A stretch of DNA of 64,000 nt from Pseudidiomarina halophila (GTDB lineage: Bacteria; Pseudomonadota; Gammaproteobacteria; Enterobacterales; Alteromonadaceae): positions 806,001 through 870,000 of the forward strand of contig NZ_PIPW01000001.1 in assembly GCF_003987215.1 (NCBI RefSeq), read 5' to 3'. Below the pieces are notes generated by a model, which worked only from the letters and a program-made list of their open reading frames with translations, was not told the DNA's origin and ran no database searches. Positions within the stretch are counted from its first letter, which is position 1, and each line of letters opens with the position of its first letter. Of this stretch, positions 2,975-21,793 are shown piece after piece. The position numbers were made by a program, and so were the translations under genes.

Positions 2975-3017
2975 TTCGCAACTAAAAACATAACGATAAA
3001 ATTGGTGGGTGCGCCGC

Positions 3018-5357
3018 ATGAATCAAAAGCTTTTTGTTACCAAGCGTAGTGGTGAACGGGAACCGCTCGATCTGGATAAAATCCATCGTGTTATCAGCTG
3101 GGCTGCCGAAGGCCTCGATAACGTTTCGGTCTCAGAAGTCGAAATCAAGTCACGAATTCAATTCTACGATGGCATCAAAACCGAAGACATCCACGAAACC
3201 ATTATCAAAGCGGCTGCCGATTTAATCTCTGAAGATGCACCGGATTACCAGTACCTGGCCGCGCGCCTCGCTATTTTCCATCTGCGTAAACTCGCTTACG
3301 GCAAGTTCGAGCCGCCTCACCTGTATGACCAGGTAACTTCAATGGTCAACAACGGGCGCTACGATGAACACCTGCTGAACGATTACAGCAAGGAAGAATT
3401 CGAGCAGATGAACGAATTCATGGACCATTCACGGGACCTCAACTTCTCTTATGCTGCGGTAAAACAGCTTGAGGGCAAGTATCTGGTGCAGAATCGGGTG
3501 ACCGGTGAGATTTACGAGAGCGCGCAGTTCTTGTATGTACTCGTCGCCGCCTGCTTGTTTGCGGACTATCCCAAAGATACCCGACTGGATTACGTGAAGC
3601 GCTTTTATGATGCGACATCACTATTTAAAATTTCATTGCCGACACCTATTATGTCGGGTGTTCGTACCCCGACCCGTCAGTTCAGCTCCTGCGTACTGAT
3701 TGAAGCTGGTGATAGCCTTGATTCAATTAATGCCACCGCAAGTGCCATCGTTAAGTATGTATCACAACGCGCCGGTATAGGTATCAACGCCGGTCGTATT
3801 CGCGCTCTAGGCAGCCCTATCCGCGGTGGTGAAGCTTTCCACACTGGCTGTATTCCGTTCTATAAATACTTTCAGACGGCAGTTAAAAGCTGTTCGCAGG
3901 GCGGTGTGCGCGGTGGTGCAGCAACCTTGTTTTATCCGCTTTGGCATCTTGAAGTCGAAAGCCTTCTGGTCCTGAAAAACAACCGTGGGGTTGAAGAGAA
4001 CCGGGTTCGTCACCTTGATTACGGCGTGCAGTTTAACCGCCTGATGTACTCGCGTCTGGTTAAAGACGATTACATCACCTTGTTCAGCCCGTCTGACACT
4101 CCGGGCCTGTACGATGCTTTCTTTGCAGACCAGGCCGAATTTGAGCGTTTGTACGTGCAATATGAAAATGATGACTCGATTCGCAAAAAGCGTATTAAAG
4201 CGCTGGAGTTATTTGGTTTGTTTATGCAAGAACGCGCCAGTACCGGGCGTATCTACCTGCAGAACGTGGACCATTGCAACACCCACAGCCCATTCGATCC
4301 AAAAGTCGCGCCCATTCGCCAGAGTAACCTGTGCCTGGAAATTGCGCTGCCAACCAAGCCGCTGGCTCATGTTAATGACGAAGAAGGTGAAATTGCCCTC
4401 TGTACGCTGTCAGCCTTTAACCTTGGCGCAATAAATACCCTTGATGATCTGGAGGAAATGGCTGACCTGGCAGTGCGCGCTCTTGATAACCTGCTGAACT
4501 ACCAGGAGTATCCGGTACCAGCAGCACGCAATGCGACCATGGGCCGTCGCACGTTAGGAATCGGCGTCATTAACTTTGCCTACTATCTGGCGAAAAATGG
4601 CGTACGTTATTCCGATGGTTCTGCCAATGGGCTGGTTCACCGTACCTTCGAAGCTATCCAGTATTATCTGATGAAAGCCTCGGTAAACCTGGCCAAAGAG
4701 CGCGGCGCCTGTCCGAAGTTTAACGAGACCACTTACTCGCAAGGTATCATGCCGATTGATACCTACAAGAAAGATCTGGATGCGGTGTGTACCGAAGCTT
4801 TGCAACTAGACTGGGATCAATTACGCGCAGATGTGAAAAAGTACGGCATGCGTAACTCTACCCTGTCCGCATTAATGCCGTCTGAGACGTCATCGCAGAT
4901 CTCGAATGCGACCAACGGTATTGAACCGCCACGGGGCCATATCAGTATCAAAGCATCCAAAGATGGTGTTACCAAGCAAGTGGTGCCAGATTACGAAAAT
5001 CTGAAAGACGCTTATGAGTTGCTGTGGACGATTCCAAATAACAAAGGCTATCTGGAACTGGTCGGCATCATGCAGAAATTCGTCGACCAAACCATTTCGG
5101 CGAATACCAATTATGACCCGAGTAAATTTGAAAGCGGTAAGGTTTCCATGAAGCAGTTGCTGCAAGACTTGCTTTATGCCTACAAACTCGGCGTGAAAAC
5201 CTTGTATTACCACAACACGCGTGACGGCGCCTCAGATAACCAGGTGGACTTACGCGACAAGATTGACGCCAAGCAACGCGAACAAGAGAACCAGCAAGCA
5301 ACGGTAGACGTCACTGAAGAAGATGACGATTGTGCCGGCGGTGCGTGTAAAATATAG
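3018..5357 (+). CDS. nrdA: Class Ia ribonucleotide reductase, large subunit
   Basis: Large (alpha) subunit reducing ribonucleoside diphosphates; it needs the radical from NrdB. It is 779 aa and collinear with E. coli NrdA. An N-terminal ATP-cone (about residues 1-95) provides dATP/ATP control. The active-site segments are RQFSSCVLI, RQSNLCLEI and IALCTLSAFN. The mobile C-terminal tail ends CAGGACKI with the redox cysteine pair that glutaredoxin or thioredoxin re-reduces. The ATG at 3018 gives the MNQKLFVTKR start; a GTG at 3009 is less likely. Its partner nrdB is now 20 kb downstream, beyond an inserted island. Confidence 0.98.
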   Translation: MNQKLFVTKRSGEREPLDLDKIHRVISWAAEGLDNVSVSEVEIKSRIQFYDGIKTEDIHETIIKAAADLISEDAPDYQYLAARLAIFHLRKLAYGKFEPPHLYDQVTSMVNNGRYDEHLLNDYSKEEFEQMNEFMDHSRDLNFSYAAVKQLEGKYLVQNRVTGEIYESAQFLYVLVAACLFADYPKDTRLDYVKRFYDATSLFKISLPTPIMSGVRTPTRQFSSCVLIEAGDSLDSINATASAIVKYVSQRAGIGINAGRIRALGSPIRGGEAFHTGCIPFYKYFQTAVKSCSQGGVRGGAATLFYPLWHLEVESLLVLKNNRGVEENRVRHLDYGVQFNRLMYSRLVKDDYITLFSPSDTPGLYDAFFADQAEFERLYVQYENDDSIRKKRIKALELFGLFMQERASTGRIYLQNVDHCNTHSPFDPKVAPIRQSNLCLEIALPTKPLAHVNDEEGEIALCTLSAFNLGAINTLDDLEEMADLAVRALDNLLNYQEYPVPAARNATMGRRTLGIGVINFAYYLAKNGVRYSDGSANGLVHRTFEAIQYYLMKASVNLAKERGACPKFNETTYSQGIMPIDTYKKDLDAVCTEALQLDWDQLRADVKKYGMRNSTLSALMPSETSSQISNATNGIEPPRGHISIKASKDGVTKQVVPDYENLKDAYELLWTIPNNKGYLELVGIMQKFVDQTISANTNYDPSKFESGKVSMKQLLQDLLYAYKLGVKTLYYHNTRDGASDNQVDLRDKIDAKQREQENQQATVDVTEEDDDCAGGACKI

Positions 5358-5428
5358 GACCTGTGTTTTTCAAAGTGTAACATTGTTGTGGATAACTTTC
5401 CGTTATTCTAACTAAATCAATAAGTTAC

Positions 5429-5454
5429 AAAGGGGCGCTTGACGCCCCTTTTTT
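5429..5454 (+). terminator. Rho-independent terminator downstream of nrdA
   Basis: A GGGGCG/CGCCCC stem (5432-5437/5443-5448) with a 5-nt loop is followed by six T. It would stop nrdA transcription before the recombinase operon. Its 3' half also contains the -35 element of the next promoter. Confidence 0.85.
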
Positions 5455-5466
5455 ACTGACTATACT
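5439..5466 (+). promoter_or_regulatory. Sigma70-type promoter for the recombinase operon
   Basis: TTGACG (5439-5444) and TATACT (5461-5466) are each 5/6 to consensus with a 16-bp spacer. The -35 lies in the loop and 3' arm of the nrdA terminator, so termination and initiation overlap physically. The predicted transcript would start about 30 nt before the first recombinase ATG. Confidence 0.65.
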
Positions 5467-5503
5467 CTGAATATCTTACCTTAGTTTCAAGTGTAACATT
5501 TCG

Positions 5504-6781
5504 ATGCGTTATTCAGTTCTAAGCTTACCTCACCCGCAGTACAACGATCAGAGGCTACCATTGCTGATCGATAAAAATAATTTTAGCGTCCCCGAGCCTA
5601 GTTCAGCGTTATGGGTGTGGGATTTATGGCTTTCCGGGAAGTTCAATACGGTAGAAGCTAGAGCACGCGATCTTTGCGTGTTTTATGAGTTCATAAGCAC
5701 TGAATATAGCGATTTCTTTTCTGATGCTGCACGGTTAAAAACACTGTCTTCAAGGCAAGTGAATCAACTCACAAGTTTTCTGTTACTCAACTTTAACCAT
5801 AACATTGAAGACCATATTTTGATCGCTCCCTCCACGTTTAATCGCAGGTTGGACTCCATTCGATCCTTTTTAAGATTTCACTACTCACGTTATATAGCCC
5901 GTGTAGAGAATATTGAAATGGCAGATATTCATCAGAAGAGAGTGGATAAGCTGGACGCTCTACTCAAGAAGAAGAAATATTCAACTGGGGATGTAGAAAA
6001 CCAAACCCACCAGACTACTCCTCTTTCACCAGCTGAAATTGAAATAATCAAGCTTGTGATCCGCCCCTCAAGCGACGACATCAAAAACGACGTAAACCCC
6101 TTCCGTAAGAGCCTTCAAGTTAGAAATGCATGCCTTATATTGCTTTTAATTGAACTTGGCTGTAGGGCTTCTGAGTTGGTTTTGCTAAGGAATAACGACC
6201 TGGACTTAAAATTAACTCATAATGCCACGGTCGTTATTCAACAGTCCGCCGCGGGAAACAACTTAAAACGACATCGTCGAGACGGTGCATCTCACAAAAC
6301 ACGAAACCGCGAACTCCCTATCAGTCCTGGATTACGTGATTTAATCGTGGAATACGTTGAAGATCACCGGCCAAAGCTTCGCAAGCCTTATAAAGGACAA
6401 TTGACAGATTATCTTTTTGTGAGTGAGCACGACGGCGGCGCAATGACAACTTCAGGCCTTGAGTATGTGGTCGAAACAATCTTTAATAGGACCAAAGGAT
6501 TAGCTGGTGTTATAACACCCCATCGCTTTCGCGTAGCAAGAATGAATGAATTGCGAGAGTCGGTTGACAATAAATATGCGAACAGCAACTCTCCTATGAT
6601 TAAAGCTGGTGACATGCAAGATACTCTTACAACTTGGGGGGGATGGACTGGCACAAGCTCGATGCCTAAGCGCTACACTAACGCTCATCTAATGAGAAAG
6701 ATAAACGAATATTTAGCCGATAAAGATACTAATAAGGGGCCTGTGGATGGCGCATGCAAACACACTTTATCTAGCACATGA
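5504..6781 (+). CDS. ginA: Tyrosine recombinase, GinA-like (first of three)
   Basis: A 425-aa site-specific tyrosine recombinase. The N-terminal half is a SAM-like core-binding domain. The catalytic residues are Arg221 (GCRASEL), the HRFR box His340-Arg343, a GGWTGT tryptophan in place of the second histidine, and nucleophile Tyr391 (KRYTN). No Shine-Dalgarno precedes the ATG at 5504; the upstream bases are part of the TGTAACATT repeat. The gene overlaps the next one by 35 bp. Three unequal recombinases followed by a small HTH protein is the layout described for GInt islands (ginABCD). The symbol is given by architecture, not by alignment. Lower G+C than the flanking housekeeping genes supports transfer. 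Confidence 0.85.
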   Translation: MRYSVLSLPHPQYNDQRLPLLIDKNNFSVPEPSSALWVWDLWLSGKFNTVEARARDLCVFYEFISTEYSDFFSDAARLKTLSSRQVNQLTSFLLLNFNHNIEDHILIAPSTFNRRLDSIRSFLRFHYSRYIARVENIEMADIHQKRVDKLDALLKKKKYSTGDVENQTHQTTPLSPAEIEIIKLVIRPSSDDIKNDVNPFRKSLQVRNACLILLLIELGCRASELVLLRNNDLDLKLTHNATVVIQQSAAGNNLKRHRRDGASHKTRNRELPISPGLRDLIVEYVEDHRPKLRKPYKGQLTDYLFVSEHDGGAMTTSGLEYVVETIFNRTKGLAGVITPHRFRVARMNELRESVDNKYANSNSPMIKAGDMQDTLTTWGGWTGTSSMPKRYTNAHLMRKINEYLADKDTNKGPVDGACKHTLSST

Positions 6782-8378
6782 GAGCGTAGATTGTTATGAA
6801 TACTTATACGAGGAAGCAAAGCGCTTAAATCATGATTACGAACCACTTCCTTTCGAGATAGAGACTTTTTTTGGTCAAAAGGTCAAGCTTCGGAAGTCAG
6901 ACGGGCGTTTAAAAAAAACAGTCCGACTAATTAATTTAGGCAGCAATACGAGCAATTATAGACTGAGCGATACGTACTCGAAATATGCCTATTTAAGTTA
7001 TATTGCCATACAATGCTGGGTCGACACAGCTATCTCCCGCAGTCCATCCATGATCAACCACTTATGTGAGGGTCTTTCTACACTTCAACACGTTTCACTT
7101 TCTGATGAAGCGCTAAATAATGAGGCAGTATTTGCTAAGGAGATCGCTTCTCAATTATCCAGGCTGATATTAGAAAACAAAGACAATCAAAGGGTCTGGC
7201 TGTCTATTCGCGCGTTTGCTAATTACGCTATTGAAAACTGCTATTGGGGTTTTGACGAGACCCTTGTGTTTAAACTTGCTGAAACAAAAATTAAAAATCA
7301 TGGCCAGAAAGCGCGTGTATCTCTCCTGGATCATGAATACGGGCCTTTTACACGATCAGAAATAGGAGAGATCACGCAGGCATTGCAAAATGATGACGTA
7401 ACTATCCATGAACGGGTCATGATAAAGTTAGCAATGCAGTTTGGTTTACGCCCTATTCAACTCGCGCTGTTGCGTGAATCAGACATTTATTATGACACCT
7501 CTAAGCTGGGTTGGTATATCAATATCCCTCGCGTAAAAGGGAAAGTATCCCAGCTTCGCCGAAATCAAAATAACTTCGTGCTTCGGGAGTTATCAGATGA
7601 TCTGGCAAATGAGATTGGTGAACTAATCAAGCAGGATGCCGTTAGGTCACTAACTCATCCTAAAGGCACCCCACTTCCTCGTCCCCTGTTTAAAAGAGAG
7701 CAAGTCGACAAGGAGTTAATCGTAGATGATAAGTTAACAGAATATGCATGGCATAAAAATTCGAATGCGTTAACTCATAAATTCATTTCATTAGGCAAGC
7801 GATTAAACATATTTTCAAGACACGTAAAGGATGATAACGGCGGCCCCACGCTACTGAGAATTTCATGTTACCGGTTCAGGTATACCTTGGGTACTCGTAT
7901 GGTTCTTGAGGGGAAAACCCCAGAAGAGGTCGCTATCGCTTTAGATCACGGCTCCACTGACTCAGTTCAACATTACTTTCGTTACAATAGAGACTTAATT
8001 GATTTTATTGATGACACATTTGACTCTTCAATAGTGCTAGAAAATGCCGTCATGCGATGGAAAGGATTCCTTATTGATGAAAACGACAGTTCCGTCGGAG
8101 GAAGGCTGATTCGGACGAGCTCAATTGCAAGTCTTGGGAAATGTTTAAAACAGGCCAGCTGTGAGTTTCATCCTACTGTTAGTTGCTATGGATGCGGAAA
8201 ATTCAGGCCGTTTAAAAATGCAGACCACCAAGCCCAATTAAAAGTTATCGAAGCAGAGAGAGAGTTCGTCCAACAACATTCATCTGGGCCCGTAAAGCAT
8301 CAATTAAATGAAGCGCTACAAGGGGCCATCGAGATCTGTGAGGCCCAAAAGTTGTTGAATAAGGAATCGGACTCATGA
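6747..8378 (+). CDS. ginB: Tyrosine recombinase, GinB-like (second of three)
   Basis: A 543-aa tyrosine recombinase with Arg235 (FGLRPIQ), a box II reading YRFRY with Tyr375 where histidine is usual and Arg378 kept, His401 (LDHGS) and Tyr410 (HYFRY). After the catalytic domain a cysteine-rich tail (CEFHPTVSCYGCGKF) suggests a small zinc-binding module. It overlaps ginA by 35 bp and ginC by 4 bp, so the three should be made together. In GInt-type islands all three recombinases and ginD are reported to be required for movement. Confidence 0.85.
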   Translation: MAHANTLYLAHESVDCYEYLYEEAKRLNHDYEPLPFEIETFFGQKVKLRKSDGRLKKTVRLINLGSNTSNYRLSDTYSKYAYLSYIAIQCWVDTAISRSPSMINHLCEGLSTLQHVSLSDEALNNEAVFAKEIASQLSRLILENKDNQRVWLSIRAFANYAIENCYWGFDETLVFKLAETKIKNHGQKARVSLLDHEYGPFTRSEIGEITQALQNDDVTIHERVMIKLAMQFGLRPIQLALLRESDIYYDTSKLGWYINIPRVKGKVSQLRRNQNNFVLRELSDDLANEIGELIKQDAVRSLTHPKGTPLPRPLFKREQVDKELIVDDKLTEYAWHKNSNALTHKFISLGKRLNIFSRHVKDDNGGPTLLRISCYRFRYTLGTRMVLEGKTPEEVAIALDHGSTDSVQHYFRYNRDLIDFIDDTFDSSIVLENAVMRWKGFLIDENDSSVGGRLIRTSSIASLGKCLKQASCEFHPTVSCYGCGKFRPFKNADHQAQLKVIEAEREFVQQHSSGPVKHQLNEALQGAIEICEAQKLLNKESDS

Positions 8379-10579
8379 GTAGTGTCGAGAACCTCGGTAA
8401 GATTCGTGAAAATAAGCGTTTACGAGATGTTATATTACGATTAGGTGAACTGGAAAATAATGCCCAAGAAGAGTTCGAAGCTTTACGCCGAAAAGATCCT
8501 CTATTGGGTGTATGGTCAGATAACGTATGGCGATACCAAAATGGTAGTATCTATTTCACAAAGCCGGTCGACGTAAATGGAAATTTAATTACTGGAAAAA
8601 GTAAAAAATCCGATAGAGAGCCTGTAAACGGTGTCTGGGCAATTATAATGCGACTGTGGGCTCTAAAGGGCTTAAAGAAGGGCAAGAATAGGAAGTCTAT
8701 TGCCTCAGAGATTGGAGCCTTATCGTGGTTAGCTGACTCTTTGTCATATAGTAATGAATCACTTATTAACTTTGACCAATCTACTCTGGATGCAACCATC
8801 CCGCTTCTTGAGTCTAAATTTCAACGGCGTGGCCCATTCGAGCGCTATAAAACCATGGTGTCCATTGCAAAAAACTTGTTGATTCCATTCAAAATTGTGC
8901 CGCGATTTAACCCAAAAATTAATATGAACAACCCTTCCAGAGAGCAAACTGACGTTACAACAAGTGAATACGAAAACCGCCGAGATAGAAAGTATGAGCA
9001 AGATATAGATAGGTATCTAGGACTGGTCAAAGCCAAGTTTGACAATTTTAAAATCCAGCTTGAAAATGGAGAGATTTGCTCCAATCCAGAGCCTAAAGAG
9101 GGTTACGATGAAATCAGGCTCCTTGCGGTTCCATTTTTGATGGCATTCGGATTACGCATAGGTGAATTATGTAGACTTACAGAAGATTGCCTCCAATATG
9201 ACGAAATTAACGAGAAATACTACCTTAAAGTTTTAACGGAAAAAGGCGAACTACCTAGCCCTCGCCCGGTACCACGCATGTGGGAAGATGTTATTTTAAA
9301 ATCTTACAAGCGGATACTAGAGCTGACTGAGGAGCACCGTTTATTTGCTAAAAGTGTCGAGTTGAATGGGCCTTTGGCTTTTATTGATGCTCTTAAGATG
9401 GAGTCGCGACCAGTTCCAATGGTCAAAGCCTTGGAAGAAAAAGGCTTCAATCCAGACTTGTTTTTGTTACGTTGCGAATTCGGACCGAATATTAAAGCAC
9501 TGCACGCAAGTGGACTTAGTTACAGCAGCTTAAGAACTAACTACAAAGCAGCTGAAGTAGGTCGGATTAAATATAAAGGCCAAAATTCAAGAAATACAAC
9601 GCTACACACCGTCTACAGCAAAAAAGAAATTGCATCAATAGCGTTTCAGAAGTACCAAACTTATCGACAGAAAGTCTACCAAGAAAACCACCTTGATGAG
9701 AATGAATCCGGGAGCTATTCGTCAAGCAGCTTCTCCGCATCCGTCTCGTTTAGTCAACTGCTCTTTATAGTAAAAGACGAAACATTTAAGAGCCAATCCT
9801 CAGGTCATGGATTCATCCCTCTCCCAATGACACCGAAGTCGTTTACGAGTTGGATAACAAACGATAAAACATCGAGGAATAAAACAGTTTTCGAGCGATA
9901 CGATATAAGGGATCGAGACGGAAACGTAGTGTCGCTAAAGACCCATAAATTTCGTCATTGGCTCACGACTGCGCTTAAGCGTTCAGGGAAAAATGAAATG
10001 ATGATTGACCTGTTCATGGGCCGAACACCGGGACAAGGTCGACATTATGATCATCGAACATCAAAAGAACGCGCTGAAACCATTCGTGAGCGCTATTTGA
10101 GCCAGACCCCACCAGATGATGCCCTTGGCCGACGAATAAAGCGTATGCGCGATAACGATGTCCCTGAAGGCGAGATAGATTGGGTTCTAAACCATACAAT
10201 GTCGGTGATTCACTATACTCCGTGGGGTACATGCAAGAGAGACCTAGACGTAAGTCCTTGCGAAAAAGGTATGATGTGCCTAAGGGGAGATACAGGTGAA
10301 GGGTGCGAACATTTTGGTATCGACCCGGACGATTTAGAAGCAAAGCAAAACATCTTAAATACAAAAACTCACTACGAAAATCAGCTTGCCGCACTAATTC
10401 CAAATTACCGCGAATTAACTGAAAAACTCAATACAGAAGAACCTCTAGATCAGCATATTAAGTTTTGCATTGACACGGTAAAAGGATGTGAGAATGCTTT
10501 AAAGTCCTATGAAAACTGGAATGGGAAGAAGAACCAAAGAATAGACGTCGTTCAAGTGTATGACCCGGAGGCGATGTAG
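8375..10579 (+). CDS. ginC: Tyrosine recombinase, GinC-like (third of three)
   Basis: A 734-aa protein, the largest of the trio. The catalytic set is Arg261 (FGLRIGEL), His524-x-x-Arg527 (HKFRHW) and Tyr558 (GRHYDH). The region after the catalytic tyrosine has a Cys/His cluster (TCKRDLDVSPCEKGMMC and GCEHFG) that looks like a metal-binding module, then a helical tail. The serine-rich segment SGSYSSSSFSASVSF near residue 449 probably forms a linker inside the catalytic domain. The stop codon is immediately followed by the ATG of the next gene. Confidence 0.85.
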   Translation: MSSVENLGKIRENKRLRDVILRLGELENNAQEEFEALRRKDPLLGVWSDNVWRYQNGSIYFTKPVDVNGNLITGKSKKSDREPVNGVWAIIMRLWALKGLKKGKNRKSIASEIGALSWLADSLSYSNESLINFDQSTLDATIPLLESKFQRRGPFERYKTMVSIAKNLLIPFKIVPRFNPKINMNNPSREQTDVTTSEYENRRDRKYEQDIDRYLGLVKAKFDNFKIQLENGEICSNPEPKEGYDEIRLLAVPFLMAFGLRIGELCRLTEDCLQYDEINEKYYLKVLTEKGELPSPRPVPRMWEDVILKSYKRILELTEEHRLFAKSVELNGPLAFIDALKMESRPVPMVKALEEKGFNPDLFLLRCEFGPNIKALHASGLSYSSLRTNYKAAEVGRIKYKGQNSRNTTLHTVYSKKEIASIAFQKYQTYRQKVYQENHLDENESGSYSSSSFSASVSFSQLLFIVKDETFKSQSSGHGFIPLPMTPKSFTSWITNDKTSRNKTVFERYDIRDRDGNVVSLKTHKFRHWLTTALKRSGKNEMMIDLFMGRTPGQGRHYDHRTSKERAETIRERYLSQTPPDDALGRRIKRMRDNDVPEGEIDWVLNHTMSVIHYTPWGTCKRDLDVSPCEKGMMCLRGDTGEGCEHFGIDPDDLEAKQNILNTKTHYENQLAALIPNYRELTEKLNTEEPLDQHIKFCIDTVKGCENALKSYENWNGKKNQRIDVVQVYDPEAM

Positions 10580-10975
10580 ATGGCTAACAGAAATTGGGAA
10601 TCTAAAGCGTTATCGTCCTTGCAGTGGTTTGCCGAAAACCCAGAATTTAAAGGTGAGTTTGGTCACCAGTATTTTGTCGATAACCTAGGTGTCAGCAGAA
10701 TGACGCTTAATCGCAGTAAGAAATACATGAAGCGGTACAGAGAGGTGAAAGAAATACTTAAAGGGTACCAATCCACCGAGCCAAATACAGGCCCTGCTCC
10801 AGCTGACGGAATGAAGCAGAAGCTTGCAAGTAAGAATAAACAAATTGAAGACTTAAAGAATCAAGTTGAGAAGTTGCAGTTACGGCTTAACGACTGCTAC
10901 CAAATGTTAGAAGACCACAATATAGACCCTCAATTTGTATACACTCAGCGACTGAAAAAACATAGAGAGGTCTAA
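10580..10975 (+). CDS. ginD: Small HTH/coiled-coil protein, GinD-like
   Basis: A 131-aa basic protein. The first 60 residues suit a helix-turn-helix (YFVDNLGVSRMTLNRSKKYMK), and residues about 75-110 form a heptad-rich coiled coil (KNKQIEDLKNQVEKLQLRL). It abuts ginC with no gap. Size and position match GinD of GInt islands and, more loosely, TnpC-like accessory proteins of Tn554-type transposons. A DNA-binding directionality or architectural role is an inference. Confidence 0.75.
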   Translation: MANRNWESKALSSLQWFAENPEFKGEFGHQYFVDNLGVSRMTLNRSKKYMKRYREVKEILKGYQSTEPNTGPAPADGMKQKLASKNKQIEDLKNQVEKLQLRLNDCYQMLEDHNIDPQFVYTQRLKKHREV

Positions 10976-10976
10976 G

Positions 10977-11420
10977 GTGGCTAATCCCCAGGCTGAAAAA
11001 AATTATCAAACCTTCAGAGCCTTTGTGCAATTGCACTGCATTGAAAATGATTGGGACGATTATGTCCTGCCAGACAAGCTTGATTTGAACAAAAAACGAA
11101 TTGCAAGAGAATGCGAATTTGACCGCAAAAGGATTACAGGGAATACCAAGATCCTTAGGCTTTATAACCTAATAAAACGAAAACTTGTAAAGAAAGGCAT
11201 ACTCGTCACCGACTCTCGTTCAGGAACCGAAAAGCGGCAGCACGAGACTGCTTTGAAAATCGCTAGCAAAGACTCGAAACTTATGAGTTCTCAACAGCAA
11301 CAAAATGCATCGTTACAGGCACAACTATACGACGTTACAAGGGACTTGAAAGAGGCTAACGAGAAGCTCAAGCACTTGAAGGCAATAGAGGACTACCTCA
11401 TGGCCACTGGGAGACTTTAA
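10977..11420 (+). CDS. Second small HTH/coiled-coil protein of the recombinase operon
   Basis: A 147-aa basic protein starting with GTG one base after the preceding stop, with AGAGAGG upstream as ribosome binding site. The N-terminal 75 residues are compact and Lys/Arg-rich (KKRIARECEFDRKRI). Residues 95-140 are a predicted coiled coil (QQQNASLQAQLYDVTRDLKE). The overall plan, basic DNA-binding head plus coiled-coil tail, repeats that of the previous gene without obvious sequence identity. Function unknown; the coupling suggests a subunit or partner of the recombination machinery. Confidence 0.65.
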   Translation: MANPQAEKNYQTFRAFVQLHCIENDWDDYVLPDKLDLNKKRIARECEFDRKRITGNTKILRLYNLIKRKLVKKGILVTDSRSGTEKRQHETALKIASKDSKLMSSQQQQNASLQAQLYDVTRDLKEANEKLKHLKAIEDYLMATGRL

Positions 11421-11424
11421 CGAA

Positions 11425-13641
11425 ATGTTTGAAGGTCTCCTGCAAATTAGAAAGGTTCGTAACAGAGGTCCCTTTGGTGGGGTTATTTTTTCTGCGGCTA
11501 CCTTGGAGGCCAGGCCCAAAAGATATGTCGTTAAAGCTGATTGGAAAATAGCTCGCTCCCCCAGTCTATTCAAAGATAGGCATATCTGGCGCGTCAAAGG
11601 CGCTGTCAAAGATGAAACCATAATTTGGAAAGACGGTACGACAGCGAATGAGCGCGTAATTGAAGCAGAGTCCCTCACGTTTGAAAAAGCAAAAAACGAG
11701 AACCTAGCGAAGCTTCTCGCGCAATCCAGTGACTTCAAAGGAATTAGCGACCTCAAAGCAGAAAAGCTTGTTGAGTGTTTTGGAGACGGGTTAATAAAGA
11801 TCGCAGTTGAGGGAGATATTGAGCGTTTACTACCCGTCGTCGGTCGAAATGTAGCGGAACGTATCATTACTGGCTTAAGAGAATACGAACAGCTTGGGAC
11901 GTTGCAGCTTCTCGATGAATTAGGTGTGCCGCCCCGTGTCGGGGAGTCAGTATTAGAAATCTGGAAGAGCAATGCCTATGAGCAAATAAAGAAAAACCCG
12001 TATTTTCTTACTGCATTTATGGCCGACATGCACATGATCGATGGCTACGCAATCGACCGGTTAGGGATGGCACCAGATTCACCCCAAAGACTCATAGCGT
12101 ATACCAAAGAGGTGTTATTTAAAGCCTTTAATAGTGGGCATACGTGCCTTCCGGTCAACGAACTTAGATATCGATTAAAACGGACTTTGCCTCAACCACT
12201 AGACGCGGCTCAAGCGATAGAGGTCGCGAGAGCACACGATGAAATAGTAATCATTGGTGACTTTGCACAAGTTAAGAGTATGGCAATTGTTGAAGCTACT
12301 GTCGCTGACATCATTACAAAATCACAAATCAGAGTTGTTTCAGACACTTTAGATAAAGACCTTAGTCACGCAATTGAATACTACGAGAAGAATAGTGGGA
12401 TTAAATTAACGGACGAACAAACGAATGCCGTATTCCAGTGCTGCAAGCACTCTTTCACTCTTCTAACAGGTGGTGCCGGTTGTGGTAAGACAACCGTAAT
12501 AGCGGCTATATGCTCATCTCTGGAGGCTTTAGGCTACACAAGCCAGGTCATCCTACTCGCATTGGCTGGAAAGGCTGCACAGCGAATTACCGAGGCTACT
12601 GGCCGAGAGGCAATGACTATAGCGAAATTTGTGCTTGCTTTAGAGCAGGAAGAGATATCGGATGATGCAGTAATAATTGTCGATGAAGCCTCAATGGTCG
12701 ATATTTTGTCATTGCTTAAGATTTTAAAACGGTTTCCAAACAAGGGGCGTATTATTCTCACTGGTGATGAAGAACAATTACCTCCGGTGGGGGTTGGCTT
12801 AGGGTTGCATACTCTGGTTAAGTTGCCACTACCCCATCCCCAACTAACTGCAATTCAAAGGCAAACTAAGGAGTCTGGAATACCGGCAGTTGCAATGGCG
12901 ATAAGACGTTATCCTCAAGTTCCAGGTGAAATTAAATTTGAACCGTACAAAGGATTAAAAGATGGCGTTAGCTTTATTGAGTGCAATGAGTCAGAGTTAA
13001 ACACCCGAGCCCTTGAGGTTTATCAAGCATTAGGAGGGAATGGAACTTCCAATGAAGTTGCAATGGTTTCCCCGGTTAAACACCAGATAGGAGGTGTTGA
13101 CGCCTTGAATTTGCTTGTTCATGACTCTCTCGCCAAAGGGGAGTCGATGTCCTTTAGTTCATCCGACTTCGGCTATTTTAATCACACCATATTAGGTAGC
13201 GCCTTACGTATTGGTGAATTGGTCATGTGCACTGTGAACGACTATGAGCGCGATATTCGTAATGGGTCGATTGGAAAAGTTATTGAACAAAAAGGAAATG
13301 AGGTCATTATTGATTTTACAGGACGAATCGTGAACCTCCCTGCCTCCAAGCTTTGCTCTCTGGACTTTGCCTACGCATTGACTGTACACAAGTCGCAAGG
13401 TAGTCAATTTGATCGGGTTGTAGTGATTGTTAAGCAGAGTCGAAATTTGGATAGACACATGCTTTACACTGCAATCACGAGAGCAAAAAAACAGGTTGTT
13501 TTAATTGGCGATCGAAACGCATTCATCGATGCTCTTTCTCAATCGAATGCCTTGAATAGGCACACTTTGCTTACACATCACTTCGAAGAGCACACTAGCT
13601 ATCATTCACTCGGGACGCTAAATAATGCATCAGCTTTCTAG
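11425..13641 (+). CDS. RecD2-like superfamily 1 DNA helicase
   Basis: A 738-aa helicase. The N-terminal 250 residues resemble the OB/helix-hairpin-helix part of RecD2. Walker A is GGAGCGKTT with Lys355, Walker B is VIIVDEAS (Asp420, Glu421), and the C-terminal UvrD_C_2 part has HKSQGSQFD (His655) and LYTAITRAKK. RecD2 enzymes unwind DNA 5'-3'. The start lies 4 bp after the preceding stop, so it looks like the sixth member of the recombinase operon. Either it processes DNA during island transfer, or it is a separate defence-type cargo gene that has come under the operon promoter. Low G+C like its neighbours. Confidence 0.85.
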   Translation: MFEGLLQIRKVRNRGPFGGVIFSAATLEARPKRYVVKADWKIARSPSLFKDRHIWRVKGAVKDETIIWKDGTTANERVIEAESLTFEKAKNENLAKLLAQSSDFKGISDLKAEKLVECFGDGLIKIAVEGDIERLLPVVGRNVAERIITGLREYEQLGTLQLLDELGVPPRVGESVLEIWKSNAYEQIKKNPYFLTAFMADMHMIDGYAIDRLGMAPDSPQRLIAYTKEVLFKAFNSGHTCLPVNELRYRLKRTLPQPLDAAQAIEVARAHDEIVIIGDFAQVKSMAIVEATVADIITKSQIRVVSDTLDKDLSHAIEYYEKNSGIKLTDEQTNAVFQCCKHSFTLLTGGAGCGKTTVIAAICSSLEALGYTSQVILLALAGKAAQRITEATGREAMTIAKFVLALEQEEISDDAVIIVDEASMVDILSLLKILKRFPNKGRIILTGDEEQLPPVGVGLGLHTLVKLPLPHPQLTAIQRQTKESGIPAVAMAIRRYPQVPGEIKFEPYKGLKDGVSFIECNESELNTRALEVYQALGGNGTSNEVAMVSPVKHQIGGVDALNLLVHDSLAKGESMSFSSSDFGYFNHTILGSALRIGELVMCTVNDYERDIRNGSIGKVIEQKGNEVIIDFTGRIVNLPASKLCSLDFAYALTVHKSQGSQFDRVVVIVKQSRNLDRHMLYTAITRAKKQVVLIGDRNAFIDALSQSNALNRHTLLTHHFEEHTSYHSLGTLNNASAF

Positions 13642-13913: not shown

Positions 13914-14255
13914 ATGCTTAGACTGGGATTTTTATTACTAGTGATTGCTGCCGTTCTGACTCAAATCAGTCAGTCGGTTGCTGACGTGCATCAATCTCAC
14001 CAGTCATCTTCTGAGCAACACCTCAATTTTGAGCATGACGAATCGCACATCGATAAGCGAAACCTACCTAAAAGTGGCGAAATCAGCTTTGACTGCCATC
14101 ATTGCTGTCACTGCCATGGTTCATTTCATTTATATGCCATGAAGGCTGAAAAAACTCTCGCGTTACCACGAATGGGCACAATACGTCCTGGGTATACTGA
14201 GTTTTACACTAACCCTCTATCATCTCCGCTGTTCCGGCCTCCCATCTCCTCATAA
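13914..14255 (+). CDS. CzcI-like histidine/cysteine-rich periplasmic protein
   Basis: A 113-aa protein with a signal peptide (MLRLGFLLLVIAAVLTQISQSVA) and a metal-binding-looking centre (DVHQSHQSSSEQH and FDCHHCCHCHG). Its size, signal peptide, His/Cys motif and place just before czcC recall CzcI of Cupriavidus, a small exported protein affecting efflux expression. Upstream, AACCTT (13882-13887) and AAGGTT (13904-13909) form an inverted repeat that could be an operator or leader hairpin; AAGG there is also the ribosome binding site. Assignment is by resemblance and context. Confidence 0.6.
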   Translation: MLRLGFLLLVIAAVLTQISQSVADVHQSHQSSSEQHLNFEHDESHIDKRNLPKSGEISFDCHHCCHCHGSFHLYAMKAEKTLALPRMGTIRPGYTEFYTNPLSSPLFRPPISS

Positions 14256-14327
14256 CTGCCTAATAAGCTGCGTTAGCAGCGCAAGAAATCATTATTTTAC
14301 GCAGTAATATGACTGAGGAGTCTATCT

Positions 14328-15578
14328 ATGGGTCCGTTTTCGACACATAGCAAACGCTTGTTTGTTGCCGTAAGTCTGGCAATAAGTTCAAGCTACGCCA
14401 ATGCACAACAGTTGCCCGAGCAATGGCAAAAAACTGTGCAGCAACACCCCAGTGTTGAAGCCGCTCAACAGCAGGCTGAAGCGCTGATCCAACAGGGCAA
14501 ACAATTAAATCAGCCTTTGTACAACCCTAGCTTATCGTCACGCTTAGAGCGCGAGGGTGACATCAATAATTACGCTGTTGGTCTAAGCCAGACGCTGGAC
14601 TGGAGCACTCGCAATGAAGCAAGGGCCAGTCAGAGTGACGCCATGACGGCTATGGCAGTGAGTATTTATCGCCAGTCGGCGACATCGCATGCTAAAACTT
14701 TGTTGAATGCCTATGTGCAATGGCTGGACGCAAAACAGCGTTACGCACTGGCTGAGCAGCAAGAGAAAATCGTTAAACAGGCGATAAGCCTGGTTGCCGA
14801 ACGACGTAAAGCCGGTGACTTAGGTGCCGTCGACGAACAACTGACGGTACTCGCGCTAAGTCGGCAACTGCAACAAACGGCAGCGGCTTATCAACAACTG
14901 CAATCCGCTGAAGCAGAGTTAAACGCTCTGCTAACAACGTCTGATGTCGGTCAACTCTCCATTAATGAGGAGCTATTTAACGTTGAACCTGCGTTAACGG
15001 CTCGTTGGCAACAACATCCAGCGTTAAAAGCCGCTTACCTGCAATGGCAATTAAAGCGCGCCGATGTCGACTGGAAACGCTCGTTAACCACCGCCAACCC
15101 AACCGTAGGCGTCGAAGCGGGCGAGAGCGATAACGAAACAGTAATTGGCTTATCATTCAGCATTCCACTACAGGTTCGCAATAACTACAGCGATGCGGTG
15201 CGCGCAGCCAATAGCGAAGCTGTTGCTGAAGAAAAACGTTTGATTGCACTAAGGCAACAATGGCAAGCAGCACTGAAATCGTCTCTTAACAATTATCGTT
15301 TTGTGAAAAAACAGTGGCAAAGCTGGCAAAGAGACTTTCAATCTCGGCAGGATGAGTCGATGCAGGTGATTGAACAATCCTGGCTCGCCGGTGACCTATC
15401 CACCACCGACTACCTCACCGCTGTGCAACAGCAGCTCGATAGCCAATTTGCAGGGATAGCGCTGCAAACACAATATCGGTTGGCCGCCATTGAATGGTTG
15501 TACCGTTCGGGCGAACTCAGTAAAGCGCTGACGTTATCGCCGTTAAGCCAGCAAACAAACGCAGAGATTGGAGAGTAA
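14328..15578 (+). CDS. czcC: Outer-membrane efflux channel, CzcC family
   Basis: A 416-aa TolC-family outer-membrane factor with a signal peptide ending near SSSYANAQQ and the long, Gln-rich alpha-helical segments of this family. It forms the exit duct of the tripartite metal pump with the next two genes. GAGGAG lies before the ATG, and the stop is 3 bp before czcB. Family assignment is secure; metal specificity cannot be read from it. Confidence 0.88.
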   Translation: MGPFSTHSKRLFVAVSLAISSSYANAQQLPEQWQKTVQQHPSVEAAQQQAEALIQQGKQLNQPLYNPSLSSRLEREGDINNYAVGLSQTLDWSTRNEARASQSDAMTAMAVSIYRQSATSHAKTLLNAYVQWLDAKQRYALAEQQEKIVKQAISLVAERRKAGDLGAVDEQLTVLALSRQLQQTAAAYQQLQSAEAELNALLTTSDVGQLSINEELFNVEPALTARWQQHPALKAAYLQWQLKRADVDWKRSLTTANPTVGVEAGESDNETVIGLSFSIPLQVRNNYSDAVRAANSEAVAEEKRLIALRQQWQAALKSSLNNYRFVKKQWQSWQRDFQSRQDESMQVIEQSWLAGDLSTTDYLTAVQQQLDSQFAGIALQTQYRLAAIEWLYRSGELSKALTLSPLSQQTNAEIGE

Positions 15579-15581
15579 ACG

Positions 15582-16727
15582 ATGTCAGTAAAACCTTTAT
15601 ACGCAGCAATAGCACTTGCGCTGAGCTTTTCGGTTATGGCGCAGGATGAACACGGACACGACGAAAAAGAAGATACCCACAAGGAAGAAGGCAAACACGA
15701 GCAAGGTGAACATAAGGAAAGCTCAGGCGTGGAGCTATCCAGCAAGCAGCTATCCATGGCAGATATCACCACGCGAACCTTGCAAACTCAAGTCATTGAA
15801 TATCCGGTTTATGCCCCGGGCGAGGTGGTTGCTAACGACTTTAATAGCTATATCGTGAGTCCGCGCATCGACTCGACCGTGCTCAAACGTTTTGTCAGTA
15901 TTGGCGACCACGTCGAAAAAGGTGAGCCGCTGGCAACCCTCTTCAGCGCGACCATGGCGGAGGCGCAAAGTCAGTATTTGGTCACACTTAACGAGTGGCA
16001 ACGCGTGCAGTCACTCGGCGAGTCAACGGTGGGTGAAAAACGCTTTGTCGAAGCGAAAAACGCCTTTACCTCAGCGCAAGCGCAACTCAAAGCATTTGGT
16101 ATGTCAGCCAGCGACATTAAGCGTTTAAGTAAAGCTAACTACCCTATCGGCGAATACCAACTGACCTCAGAAATTGGCGGGATTGTGGTTAGCGATAACT
16201 TCAAGCAAGGCCAGCAAGTTAATGCCGGTAATCACTTGGTTGAAGTGCTGCAAGAAGAAACCTTGTGGGTTAATGCTCGTCTACCAGGCTCAGCTGACCT
16301 TAGTGTGCAGTTTGGTGATCCTGTTACAGTGAGTGTCGACAATCAGCGCTTTGCGGCAAAAGTCATTCAGGAAGGCCACACAATAGACCATAAAACCCGC
16401 ACTCGAACGGTACGACTTGCGGTAAATAACGAAAAGGACCAATTACACCCTGGTTTATTTGCGGATGTTTATTTCTCAGTCAAGTCGGATGGACCGGTGC
16501 TTGCAGTTAAGGACTCAGCCTTAATGCGGGCCCCTGATGGTGACTGGCAGATATTCATTGAGCACGAACCCGGAAAGTTTGAACCGAAGAAAGTCGAATT
16601 GGTTGATGAAAAGGGTCCGTGGAAAGTTATTCGAGGCGTTAAGGAAGGCACAAAATACGTAGACAACGGCGCGTTTTTCGTTCGCTCACAAATCGCTAAA
16701 GGCGGTTTTGACCCACATAACCACTAA
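15582..16727 (+). CDS. czcB: Periplasmic adaptor of metal efflux pump, CzcB family
   Basis: A 381-aa membrane-fusion protein with a signal peptide (AIALALSFSVMA) and a charged His-rich mature N-terminus (DEHGHDEKEDTHKEEGKHE) that could capture metal. The lipoyl/barrel-sandwich halves (VSIGDHVEKGEPLATLFS and SEIGGIVVSDNFKQGQQV) and beta-barrel follow. It bridges CzcA and CzcC. It sits 3 bp after czcC and 11 bp before czcA, which has AGGAGG in that gap. Confidence 0.9.
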   Translation: MSVKPLYAAIALALSFSVMAQDEHGHDEKEDTHKEEGKHEQGEHKESSGVELSSKQLSMADITTRTLQTQVIEYPVYAPGEVVANDFNSYIVSPRIDSTVLKRFVSIGDHVEKGEPLATLFSATMAEAQSQYLVTLNEWQRVQSLGESTVGEKRFVEAKNAFTSAQAQLKAFGMSASDIKRLSKANYPIGEYQLTSEIGGIVVSDNFKQGQQVNAGNHLVEVLQEETLWVNARLPGSADLSVQFGDPVTVSVDNQRFAAKVIQEGHTIDHKTRTRTVRLAVNNEKDQLHPGLFADVYFSVKSDGPVLAVKDSALMRAPDGDWQIFIEHEPGKFEPKKVELVDEKGPWKVIRGVKEGTKYVDNGAFFVRSQIAKGGFDPHNH

Positions 16728-16738
16728 CAGGAGGTTGT

Positions 16739-19700
16739 ATGTTTCAGCGCATTATTCAGTTTGCTGTCGCCAATCGCCTGTTATTGGTATTGGCTTTATT
16801 CAGCATCAGCATTGCGTCATTTTTTATTATTCCCAAACTTAATCTGGATGCCTTTCCCGATGTTACCAACGTTCAGGTAACGGTAAATACGGAAGCACCC
16901 GGATTAGCAGCGACCGAAGTCGAGCAGCTGATTACCTATCCGATAGAGTCGGTGATGTATGCCCTGCCCGACGTCAAAGAAGTTCGGTCAATCTCAAAAA
17001 CAGGTTTATCGGGCATTACCGTGGTATTTGACGAGAGTGTCGATATCTACTTTGCCCGGCAACTGGTATTCGAGCGGCTGCAAGCGGCAAAGGAATTGAT
17101 TCCAGAGGGAGTCGGCACGCCCGAAATGGGCCCTAACTCTTCCGGTCTCGGCCAGGTTTATCAGTATCTGCTACTTGCCGAGCCGGGCTCTGATGTCAGT
17201 AGCATGGAGCTACGCAGTCTTAACGACTATGTGGTTAAACTGCTACTGATGCCCGTTGAGGGAATTACCGAAGTCTTGTCCTTTGGCGGTGAAGTTAAGC
17301 AATATCAGGTTAACCTCAATCCCGCCAAGCTGCTGTCTTACGACCTTACCCAGCAAGACGTCATGGGCGCGGTCAACAAGAATAACGGTAACGTTGGTGG
17401 TTGGTATATGCCCCGCGGTCAGGAGCAGTTGGTTATTCGCGGCACCGGCTGGCTGGAAAGCGGTAAAAAAGGTCTACAGCAGATACAACAAATACCGCTC
17501 AAAACCGTTGACGGCGTTTCCGTAACACTGGGCCAGGTTGCCGACGTCGAAATCGGCAGTGAAATTCGCCAGGGAGCGGTCTCAATGTCGCGTAAAGTCG
17601 ACGGCGAGGTCAACCAGCTGGGCGAAGTGGTGTCGGGTATTGTGCTCAAACGCATGGGCTCGAATACCAAAGCCACCATCGACGGTATTAAAAAGCGCAT
17701 TCCGCTTATTCAGCAAGCATTACCCGAGGGTGTCACCTTTGAGCCGTATTATGATCAGGCCGATTTAATACAAAAAGCCGTATCTACGGTCGCATATTCA
17801 CTGCTCATTGCCTTTGTCTTTATTATCGCAGTATTAGCACTGTTTTTGCTCAACATACGCGCTACTTTTTTAGTGTTACTGTCCATTCCCGTTTCTATCG
17901 CCATTGCCCTGATGGTAATGTCCGCGATGGGCATGTCAGCTAACCTGATGTCGCTGGGCGGGATTGCTGTTGCCATTGGTATGCTGGTCGACGGCTCCGT
18001 GGTGATGGTTGAAAACATCTTTAAGCACTTAAGTCGTCCGGATAGTGAACACCAAGGCGACGCCGAGCAACGCACAGAGCACCGCGACCCGGATCTTCAG
18101 GCAGCCAAACTCGATAGCCATGGTATCAAGCTGCGAGTTAAGGAAGCGGCTAACGAAGTGGCACGACCGGTATTCTTTGCCGCCATGATTATCTTGGTGG
18201 TCTTTATGCCACTGTTTAGTTTTCAGGGTGTTGAAGCTAAATTATTTGAGCCCATGGCGATCAGTATTATGTTGGCCATTATCTCCGCGGTTTTTGTGGC
18301 CATTATGGTTGTCCCGGCATTAGCCAGTTACTTTTTCAGTCGGGGTATTAAGCCTCGTGAAAATAAACTGCTTAAACCACTAGATAATGGTTATAAAAGA
18401 CTATTATCGGTGGCGTTACGCAGTAAAAAGGCTGTTATTACCCTGGCCGGTGTGCTGTTTGTCGGCGCTTTGGTGTTAGTGCCTCGTCTCGGCACAGAAT
18501 TTGCGCCCGAATTGGAAGAAGGCACGATTAATATTCGCGTGACATTAGCCCCCTCCTCTAACCTTGAAACGGCCTTAGAGGTGGCTCCGAAGCTTGAAAA
18601 AATCCTGATGTCGTTCCCGGAAACCACCTACGCACTCAGCCGCATTGGACGAGCTGAAGTGGGTGGTGATCCAGAGCCTATCAGCAACATCGAGATATAC
18701 GTGGGTCTCAAGCCGCAGTCTGAATGGACAACAGCATCGGATCGCTACGCCTTACAAGAAAAAATGGAGGCAAAACTCGATGCTCACCCAGGCTTGTTGT
18801 TTAATTTTTCACAACCTATCGCAACACGGGTTGATGAACTGCTCTCAGGTGTAAAATCGCAGCTAGCCATCAAACTATTTGGACCCGAGCTTGACGTGTT
18901 GGCCCGTAAAGGCCAGGAAATAGAAAGTGCCGTCAAGCAAGTTGACGGGGCCGTTGCAGTAGCGATGGAGCAAATAAAAGGTGAAGCACAACTCGTGGTT
19001 TCGCCGAAACGCCAACAACTCTCACGCTACGGCTTAAATGTCTCCGATGTACTGAGCGTTGTCGACAATGGCTTGGGTGGCGCTTCGGCAGGCCAGATCA
19101 TTCGCGGTAATGAGCGCTATGATATTTACGTGCGGCTGGCCAAGCAATTCCGCGATACGCCGGAGTCTATTCGCTCGTTACGCTTGTTAACTCCTTCGGG
19201 AGCCTGGGTAACCGTAGGCGAAGTCGCCCACGTCGCAATTGAATCAGGACCACCGCAAATCCGTCGTGATGACGTACAGCGTCGCGTTGTGATTCAATCG
19301 AACGTTCAGGGTCGTGACATGGGTAGCGTGGTTGCCGATATTAGGAAGGCGATTGACGAGAAGGTGGATTTACCAACCGGTTACTCAGTCGACATTGGTG
19401 GCCAGTTCGAAAGTCAACAACGAGCACAGGAGCGCTTGTCCATTGTCGTTCCCATATCGCTGGCACTCATCGCCCTGCTGCTTTATTTTGCTTTCGGCAC
19501 CATGGGTCAAGCCATGTTGATTTTGGTGAATGTACCATTGGCAGTCATCGGCGGTATTGTGGCACTCTATGTGTCAGGACAGTACTTATCGGTGCCCAGC
19601 GCCGTGGGTTTCATCACACTGTTTGGTGTGGCGGTACTAAACGGTGTGGTTCTGGTCGAGAGTATTAACCAGAGAATAACCGATGGGCATGCGGTTAATG

Positions 19701-19936: not shown

Positions 19937-19951
19937 GGTTCAATAGCATTT

Positions 19952-19979
19952 AAGGGGGCGGTTATTGTCGCCCCCTTTT
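19952..19979 (+). terminator. Terminator or attenuator between czcA and the CDF gene
   Basis: A stem of AAGGGGGCG against CGCCCCCTT with an 8-nt loop, then TT. It lies 15 bp after czcA and 20 bp before the next start, so it would lower but need not abolish read-through. Confidence 0.8.
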
Positions 19980-19998
19980 ATTAAAAGAGGAACGTATT

Positions 19999-20886: not shown

Positions 20887-20888
20887 TA

Positions 20889-21224: not shown

Positions 21225-21275
21225 CTATAAAGCAATTCAGTTAAAGAACTCCGCTCAAAAGTTTTACTACACAGA

Positions 21276-21719: not shown

Positions 21720-21724
21720 AGCTA

Positions 21725-21755: not shown

Positions 21756-21793
21756 TAACACATTAAAGCAAAATGCCCGAAGGAGTTACTCTT

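What the first reader, a model, noticed from the sequence alone, without database searches (positions are those of the whole stretch)
5504..13641. Six-gene operon: three tyrosine recombinases, two HTH/coiled-coil proteins and a RecD2-like helicase
The first four genes fit the ginABCD set of GInt islands (three unequal recombinases plus a small HTH protein). They continue, with gaps of 0-4 bp, into a second small coiled-coil protein and a 738-aa helicase. Such coupling suggests that the helicase and the second small protein are working parts of the integration/excision machine, not passengers. I know of no description of a helicase as a component of this system.
Basis: partly seen in the sequence, partly recalled or inferred. 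Interest (0 to 1): 0.82.

Follow-up and report, generated by a model that had tools for sequence, protein, structure and literature searches.

The report
Swappable helicase cassette in integrase islands
A mobile DNA island in a marine-type bacterium carries three integrase-like genes plus a helper pair, a small probably DNA-binding protein and a DNA-unwinding enzyme, and other, very different integrase islands appear to have taken up the same pair as one ready-made unit.

Summary
The six genes are real and form one operon (5504-13641). Genes 1-4 have a GInt (ginABCD-like) layout. The ~20-kb island sits in the 3' end of nrdA; 25 of 25 other genomes of the genus have nrdA beside nrdB without it. 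Genes 5-6 (VPA1267-family protein, RecD2-like helicase) are a separate two-gene cassette: 23 of 23 examined VPA1267-family loci in 394 genomes have this helicase next (19 with a full-length frame), 21 of them with identified tyrosine recombinases. The pair occurs in GInt-like, Gamma-Mobile-Trio (GMT) and other operons; a gin-like copy and three GMT copies are 90-93% identical in DNA from the start codon of gene 5 to just past gene 6, with almost no DNA similarity outside. But 22 of 36 sampled gin-like loci and 13 of 15 GMT loci lack it, and a published ginABCD construct moves without it. So it is a selected, exchangeable accessory, probably acting on recombination intermediates; that step is inferred. 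Main texts of the GInt and SE papers hold no word 'helicase'; the GMT paper could not be read.

The parts
3009..5357 (+). nrdA (class Ia ribonucleotide reductase alpha); its 3' end is the insertion target and its reading frame is kept
   Evidence: NF006578 1544.6 bits; empty-site comparison
5346..5357 (+). attL: last codons and stop of nrdA (TGTAAAATATAG); imperfect direct repeat AAAATATAG / AAAATCTAA with attR
   Evidence: same place in L011, L013, L014, L015
5373..5384 (+). terminal motif copy 1 (AAGTGTAACATT), putative recombinase-binding site
   Evidence: direct repeat with 5489-5500; in L013, L014 and L015 the letters differ but the position is kept
5387..5395 (-). perfect DnaA-box-like 9-mer (TGTGGATAA), 30 bp after the nrdA stop, in a 12-base block invariant in five aligned relatives
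   Evidence: the DnaA consensus is recalled
5429..5466 (+). hairpin with T run nested with a promoter-like site (TTGACG-16-TATACT) before gene 1
   Evidence: inverted repeat; promoter-like site, 10 of 12, at 5439-5466; the terminator scan itself did not report the hairpin
5489..5500 (+). terminal motif copy 2, just before gene 1
5504..6781 (+). gene 1: tyrosine recombinase (GinA-like by position), 425 aa
   Evidence: PF00589 7.1e-10
6747..8378 (+). gene 2: tyrosine recombinase (GinB-like by position), 543 aa
   Evidence: PF00589 1.2e-6; NF041502 1.4e-48
8375..10579 (+). gene 3: large recombinase-like protein (GinC-like by position), 734 aa
   Evidence: weak PF00589; R261, H524, R527, Y558 invariant in a nine-row alignment; reading these as catalytic residues is mine
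10580..10975 (+). gene 4: small GinD-like protein (by position), 131 aa
   Evidence: follows gene 3 in gin-like loci; weak profile similarity to the gene 5 family
10977..11420 (+). gene 5 (V5): VPA1267-like protein, short N-terminal helices plus a long C-terminal helix, 147 aa
   Evidence: NF040697 7.3e-13; AlphaFold2 model, pLDDT 90.4, helix 83-144
11425..13641 (+). gene 6 (H6): RecD2-like SF1B helicase, 738 aa, motifs I, II, III, V, VI present
   Evidence: TIGR01448 2.3e-110; PDB 3e1s 2e-44; motif table
13914..23916 (+). cargo: metal-efflux and mercury-type genes (weak CopL-like hit, outer-membrane efflux, CzcB-like adaptor, 1065-aa pump, CDF-like, a MerR-like gene on the - strand, Mer-like genes)
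   Evidence: for the first three; the rest read by eye from the sequence
25138..25153 (+). terminal motif copy near the right end
25311..25326 (-). inverted terminal motif copy at the right end
   Evidence: matching place in L013 and L014
25339..25347 (+). attR (AAAATCTAA) joined to the nrdA-nrdB intergenic sequence
   Evidence: nearly the same sequence as the empty site in L024 and L026
25366..26496 (+). nrdB, displaced about 20 kb from nrdA
   Evidence: 26 of 26 genus genomes have the gene; nrdA lies beside it in the 25 others

Best explanation
The operon is a GInt-type recombination operon (genes 1-4) with an exchangeable two-gene cassette (genes 5-6) at its 3' end. The recombinases join attL (nrdA 3' end) and attR to make a circular form (inferred from GInts). 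The small gene-5 protein, perhaps a distant relative of the GinD-like gene-4 protein, is proposed to bring the RecD2-like helicase to the recombination complex or the terminal DNA. The helicase would then separate strands of the joined intermediate so that a copy can be replicated out, or clear the DNA for resolution. Shown by sequence: gene order, coupling, purifying selection, repeated association with different recombinase operons, exchange as one unit. Inferred: recruitment, the substrate, and the effect on copying out or integration. The cassette is an accessory that improves or adapts movement, not an obligatory part.
For: (1) 23 of 23 examined VPA1267-family loci in 394 genomes of the order have the helicase as next gene on the strand; 19 full-length frames, 4 broken or shortened (L113, L119, L209, L214); in 21 of 23 the operon has tyrosine recombinases found by profile or Pfam. 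(2) The pair overlaps by 4 bp in 18 of 28 measured loci; the other ten lie at -7 to +4 bp except L017 at +108 (longest-ORF starts). (3) Same cassette on different operons: L137 (gin-like, nth site) against L219, L218 and L194 (GMT) is 93.1%, 92.9% and 90.4% identical over about 2.6 kb, starting at base 1 of gene 5 in all three and ending 5, 41 and 25 bp after gene 6; the only other blastn match (E 1e-8, plus strand) is a 112-bp piece in L219. (4) On the gin recombinase tree presence or absence changes at least 9 times among 41 loci; L137 and L139 have close recombinases but distant cassettes. (5) 34 module helicases form one clade against 17 other RecD-like helicases, SH-aLRT 99; 0 of 74 phage-contig RecD-like loci (a capped list) has a gene-5 homologue. 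(6) dN/dS 0.065-0.228 for gene 5 and 0.068-0.122 for gene 6 in four pairs. (7) No + strand promoter-like site in 10400-14000. (8) Profile match of gene-4 and gene-5 families, probability 92-94%; reversed control 5%.
Against: 22 of 36 gin-like loci of the order sample and 13 of 15 GMT loci lack the cassette, as do the two further GmtZ loci L079 and L080. pGInt0 moves without it. The place after ginD is where cargo begins in GInts (PMC5385486), and in an E. coli plasmid gin-like operon that slot holds the defence gene avs4. The helicase is broken or shortened in L113, L119, L209 and L214. Two of the 23 lack an identified tyrosine recombinase: L209 (three unmatched large genes) and L214 (a resolvase-like gene only). 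L019 has the pair but its two large upstream genes match nothing in Pfam. Helicases of the wider family occur in other settings: L221, L222, L223. Five + strand terminator-like sites lie inside 10400-14000. PADLOC's best hit for the helicase is a type IV CRISPR RecD model, 3e-64, probably general RecD homology. Foldseek found nothing better than E 1.8 for the gene-5 model. Nothing here shows binding, unwinding or an effect on excision. The trees are 'quick' ones with long branches.
Confidence: 0.55

Rival explanations
1. Genes 5-6 are a defence or counter-defence cassette that uses the first cargo slot and the recombinase promoter for expression; helicase plus small protein would act on invading DNA.
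For: The slot after ginD is where cargo starts (PMC5385486); an E. coli gin-like operon has avs4 there; cassettes swap quickly, as defence genes do; PADLOC helicase-type models match gene 6.
Against: In 23 of 23 examined loci the two genes go together and in 21 they lie in an operon with identified tyrosine recombinases; no PADLOC model matches gene 5 at E 0.01; no own promoter seen in the window; gene 5 resembles the recombination auxiliary gene 4.
Confidence: 0.22
2. Genes 5-6 stabilise the island, or control its copy number or the exclusion of other islands, without acting in recombination itself.
For: A perfect DnaA-box-like site lies 30 bp inside the left end in this clade; no empty site was detected for some GInts, which its authors read as possibly replicative, lethal or altering the site (PMC5385486).
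Against: DnaA-box-like sites are absent from most other cassette-bearing loci; neither gene of the pair matched a partition or toxin family.
Confidence: 0.13
3. Ordinary hitchhiking: the pair arrived with the operon and has no role in the element.
For: Many related operons lack it; broken or shortened copies exist (L113, L119, L209, L214).
Against: At least 9 changes of state on the recombinase tree, exchange with limits at the start of gene 5 and just past gene 6, and purifying selection.
Confidence: 0.05

Closest known systems
GInt (ginABCD, genomic islands with three integrases; also called Tn6571 family in PMC10121019), PMC5385486
   Same: Three recombinase-type genes of unequal size plus a small protein, cargo after them, site-specific insertion at a gene end with short imperfect direct repeats, product of the target gene kept; other gin-like operons here sit at ssb, a target that paper also reports.
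   Different: Two further operon genes (VPA1267-like and RecD2-like helicase); target nrdA; [quoted passage not shown] No published gin sequence was compared directly.
Gamma-Mobile-Trio (gmtY-gmtZ-gmtX), Mahata et al. 2024, doi 10.1038/s41564-024-01840-5 (not held, not read; seen only as a citation)
   Same: Some GMT operons carry the VPA1267-family gene and the helicase right after gmtX (L022, L194, L195, L217, L218, L219; L220 has the same layout under other names).
   Different: The window's recombinases are not GmtY or GmtZ and gene 4 is not GmtX by NCBIfam.
Strand-biased circularizing elements (SE: intA, tfp, intB, srap), PMC10214605
   Same: Multi-recombinase operon plus a small coiled-coil auxiliary; proposed copy-out movement.
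   Different: No detectable similarity between the four core proteins of the presumed SE on pAQU1 and the families or genes here; the genes after that SE operon are annotated DUF262 and a beta-lactamase, not this pair.
RecD2 helicase (PDB 3e1s, labelled RecD by its depositors; Deinococcus RecD2 from recall)
   Same: SF1B helicase core; 2e-44; RecD2 helix-hairpin-helix domain by Pfam.
   Different: Module helicases form their own clade against 17 other RecD-like proteins; 3e1s itself was not in that tree.

Membership tests
GInt | Four-gene operon: three tyrosine-recombinase-type genes and a small protein | tested here: met
   gene 3 only weakly by Pfam
GInt | Site-specific insertion with 10-17 nt imperfect direct repeats, target product kept | tested here: met
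   the repeat I can define is 9 nt with two differences, slightly short of 10
GInt | Cargo starting directly at the end of ginD | tested here: inconclusive
   genes 5-6 fill that place; whether they are cargo is the question
GInt | All four genes needed for excision and integration; circular intermediate | not testable with these tools
   needs experiment
GInt | Sequence similarity to published GinA-D | not tested
   no published GinA-D sequence was fetched
GMT | gmtY, gmtZ, gmtX by their NCBIfam models | tested here: not met
   gene 1 GmtY 12.9 bits against 340; no GmtZ or GmtX hit at E 0.1
SE | Tfp and Srap homologues | tested here: not met
   no hit at E below 1 by profile or phmmer, using the presumed SE of pAQU1
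RecD2 helicase | SF1B helicase motifs with RecD2 helix-hairpin-helix region | tested here: met
   below the NCBIfam equivalog cut-off, so called RecD2-like
VPA1267 family (NF040697) | Match to the curated model | tested here: inconclusive
   7.3e-13 but 48.9 bits against 90; same position and partner gene as members over the cut-off

The most novel reading that the evidence does not exclude
The VPA1267-family plus RecD2-like pair is a general, exchangeable replication or strand-separation module for multi-recombinase islands: whichever recombinases make the first strand exchange, this pair turns the intermediate into a released copy, making GInt and GMT islands that carry it copy-out elements, in this clade perhaps tied to the host initiator DnaA through the site 30 bp inside the left end.
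Probability: 0.27. Interest if true: 0.82.

Novelty: new variant of a known kind. Interest (0 to 1): 0.62.

Why it matters
GInt and GMT islands carry resistance, metal-tolerance and defence genes, and how some GInts circularise without a detectable empty site is open (PMC5385486). A helicase cassette exchanged between otherwise different recombinase operons points to a shared step after recombination and gives a simple experiment, since close natural operons with and without the cassette exist (L130 and L127).

Tried and rejected
Passenger by chance: rejected as the main reading. Obligatory component of all gin operons: rejected, 22 of 36 lack it. Window as a GMT or SE: rejected. Fold comparison of the gene-5 model with the PDB gave nothing usable. 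A gene-4 to gene-5 profile match of 98.7% was inflated because one gene-5 sequence (L017) had been placed in the gene-4 set; repeated without it. The gene-3 profile found nothing in the PDB at E 0.1. A viral-contig scan for the left-end motif found nothing. The paper searches listed mostly unrelated papers. A remnant of gene 5 in L121 is suggested only: best local score 49 among nine queries against a maximum of 38.5 in 300 simple shuffles run for that one best query; blastn and tblastn searches did not find it. The DnaA-box-like site is not a general feature: of 66 loci scanned 11 have a TTATNCACA-type site; the exact form occurs in 8, being the window, L011, L013, L014, L015, L016, L111 (the same contig as L016) and L113; L112 has one mismatch.
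Full report
Observation. The six ORFs are where the finding says, on the + strand, with spacings of -35, -4, 0, 1 and 4 bp. Pfam and NCBIfam give tyrosine recombinases for genes 1 and 2, a weak recombinase signal for gene 3, nothing significant for gene 4, the VPA1267 family for gene 5 (below the curated cut-off) and a RecD2-like helicase for gene 6 (below the RecD2 equivalog cut-off). The five helicase motifs checked are present in gene 6; among 34 module helicases one (L119) ends before motif VI, and a few others vary in single letters. PDB 3e1s, labelled RecD by its depositors, is the nearest solved relative.

Place in the genome. The window lies in contig C1 of a 2.6-Mb genome. The island lies between nrdA (3009-5357) and nrdB (25366-26496). 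In 25 of 25 other genomes of the genus nrdA ends within about 100 bp of nrdB; the junction letters were printed for 23 of them. The comparison gives attL 5346-5357 and attR 25339-25347, with an imperfect 9-nt direct repeat, and the nrdA frame is kept with its own stop. All six loci of the clade that hold the upstream side, the window included, are at the same nrdA end (window, L011, L013, L014, L015, L112); L012, L016 and L111 begin too late to tell. The window and Alteromonas lipotrueiana L011 share 94% DNA identity over 12.2 kb of operon and cargo, against 84% over the stretch from nrdA to gene 2. Since an Alteromonas contig (L016) is identical to one from a same-family, different-genus genome (G594), I infer transfer between genera.

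Relatives. A genome-contig scan with gene 3 gave six loci; the five long enough carry all six genes in order, the sixth is cut off after gene 5. Twelve plasmid records were opened from the helicase search, of 292 records with at least 80% of the query covered. Nine have the pair: L017, L018 and L020 (alpha- and betaproteobacteria, gin-like), L019 (upstream genes unmatched), and L022 and L217-L220 (GMT layout). Three do not: L221, L222 and L223 have only a helicase of the wider family. Of 48 records from the gene-3 search, five were opened for it (L021, L302-L305). All five match the gin-like profiles, and none has a match to the helicase profile; L305 has a 17-bit match to the gene-5 profile. 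In L302 the gene after the gin-like operon is avs4; L303 has an unrelated DEAD/DEAH-box helicase gene further on. The record of L017 is also among those 48 and does carry the pair.

Forward sample. A profile of gene 3 matched 34 of 394 genomes of the order, the window's included. The 36 places other than the window were fetched. Twelve have the pair after gene 4 (in L139 after a further resolvase-like gene; in L143 the small gene is in place but not recognised by the profile; in L119 the helicase is shortened). One (L113) has broken pieces, 22 have none, and one (L138) ends at the contig edge. L134 and L135 share the same sequence on two contigs of one genome and L111 equals L016, so these counts hold repeats. 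GmtZ against the same 394 genomes gave 15 loci at E 1e-20 or better, two with the pair and 13 without; two GmtZ loci from the class search, L079 and L080, also lack it.

Reverse sample. The VPA1267 family against the same 394 genomes gave 31 matches, 24 of them at E 2e-6 or better. Twenty-three were examined; the 24th is a 41-codon fragment without a locus, and the seven weaker ones (E 4e-4 and above) were not examined. In 23 of 23 the next gene on the strand is the helicase, full-length in 19 and broken or shortened in L113, L119, L209 and L214. In 21 the operon has tyrosine recombinases by profile or Pfam. L209 has three large genes that matched nothing, and L214 has only a gene that reads like a serine resolvase.

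Cassette exchange. The helicase tree mixes gin-like, GMT and other operons, with close neighbours on different operon types. DNA comparison shows the unit directly: L137 (gin-like) and three GMT loci, two of them plasmids, share 90-93% identity from base 1 of gene 5 to 5-41 bp past gene 6; at blastn E 1e-8 on the plus strand the only other match is 112 bp in L219. L210, with another recombinase type, shares 83% with L137 and 84% with L218 over the same span. On a tree of concatenated recombinases (42 rows, 41 labelled) presence or absence changes at least nine times. L130 with and L127 without are neighbours, and their DNA similarity stops near the end of gene 4.

Selection and specificity. 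Genes 5 and 6 are under purifying selection in four pairs, in the same range as the recombinases. The module helicases are one clade against 17 other RecD-like proteins, 14 from phage contigs and three from plasmids.

Gene 5. AlphaFold2 gives a confident model (mean pLDDT 90.4) of short N-terminal helices and a long C-terminal helix; no PDB match is significant. Its profile weakly matches the gene-4 profile. GinD and Srap are described as having C-terminal coiled coils (PMC10214605, passage). I infer an adaptor role.

Mechanism. GInt work reports that all four gin genes are needed and that a minimal construct integrates and excises, and that an empty site was not detected in some strains, for which its authors offer a replicative process, lethality or changes at the site (PMC5385486; first part of the text, passages). 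SE authors propose copying out after one strand exchange (PMC10214605; first part, passages). The word helicase does not occur in either main text. A helicase that separates the joined strands would fit that step. This is inference; no tool here tests it.

Prior knowledge. The pair beside gmtY and gmtX is visible in RefSeq annotation as 'VPA1267 family protein' and 'AAA family ATPase'. The GMT paper is not held, so whether its authors describe the helicase is unknown. An older paper on the V. parahaemolyticus island VPaI-6 does not name a helicase in it in the passages seen (PMC1464126). The listings showed no paper on this association; most listed papers were not opened. I therefore do not claim that it is unpublished.

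Verdict.

Noticed in passing
window 5346-5357; L113, L115, L119, L194, L215, L216 and others: Many multi-recombinase islands here sit after DNA-metabolism genes: ssb 12, nth 7, nrdA 6, and one each for HU, nfo, tmk and thyA, together 29 of 68 loci scanned. The seven reference genes were chosen after looking at upstream genes, each reference matches itself once, and in L118, L129, L138 and L144 the ssb match ends 330-580 bp before the first gene; so a lead, not a test.
   Followed up: partly
window 5387-5395: Perfect DnaA-box-like 9-mer inside the left end, exactly 30 bp after the nrdA stop in the window, L011, L013, L014 and L015, and present also in L016 and in L113, which sits after an HU gene.
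   Followed up: partly
window 5429-5466: Hairpin stem that differs between relatives while a TTGAC in it stays: a possible terminator nested with a promoter before gene 1.
   Followed up: partly
L079 10177-10653; L197-L202 after gmtX: GMT loci lacking the helicase pair have a gene of about 156-164 aa after gmtX; in L079 it is GreA/GreB-like by Pfam. The others were judged by size and position only.
   Followed up: partly
L139, L209, L212, L214 just before gene 5: A gene of about 185-193 aa that reads like a serine recombinase precedes the VPA1267-family gene in these four loci; only the L212 copy was tested.
   Followed up: partly
L011 about 6600-10000: In Alteromonas lipotrueiana the same operon has about 3.4 kb of metal-type genes (read by eye) between genes 2 and 3.
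   Followed up: no
L121 about 11145: Possible remnant of gene 5 directly after gene 4 in a locus lacking the cassette.
   Followed up: partly
L013 15333-18549 and L014 15332-18548: Two nrdA-site islands in Pseudoalteromonas and Paraglaciecola carry mercury-type cargo (named by eye) that is 93.7% identical in DNA.
   Followed up: partly
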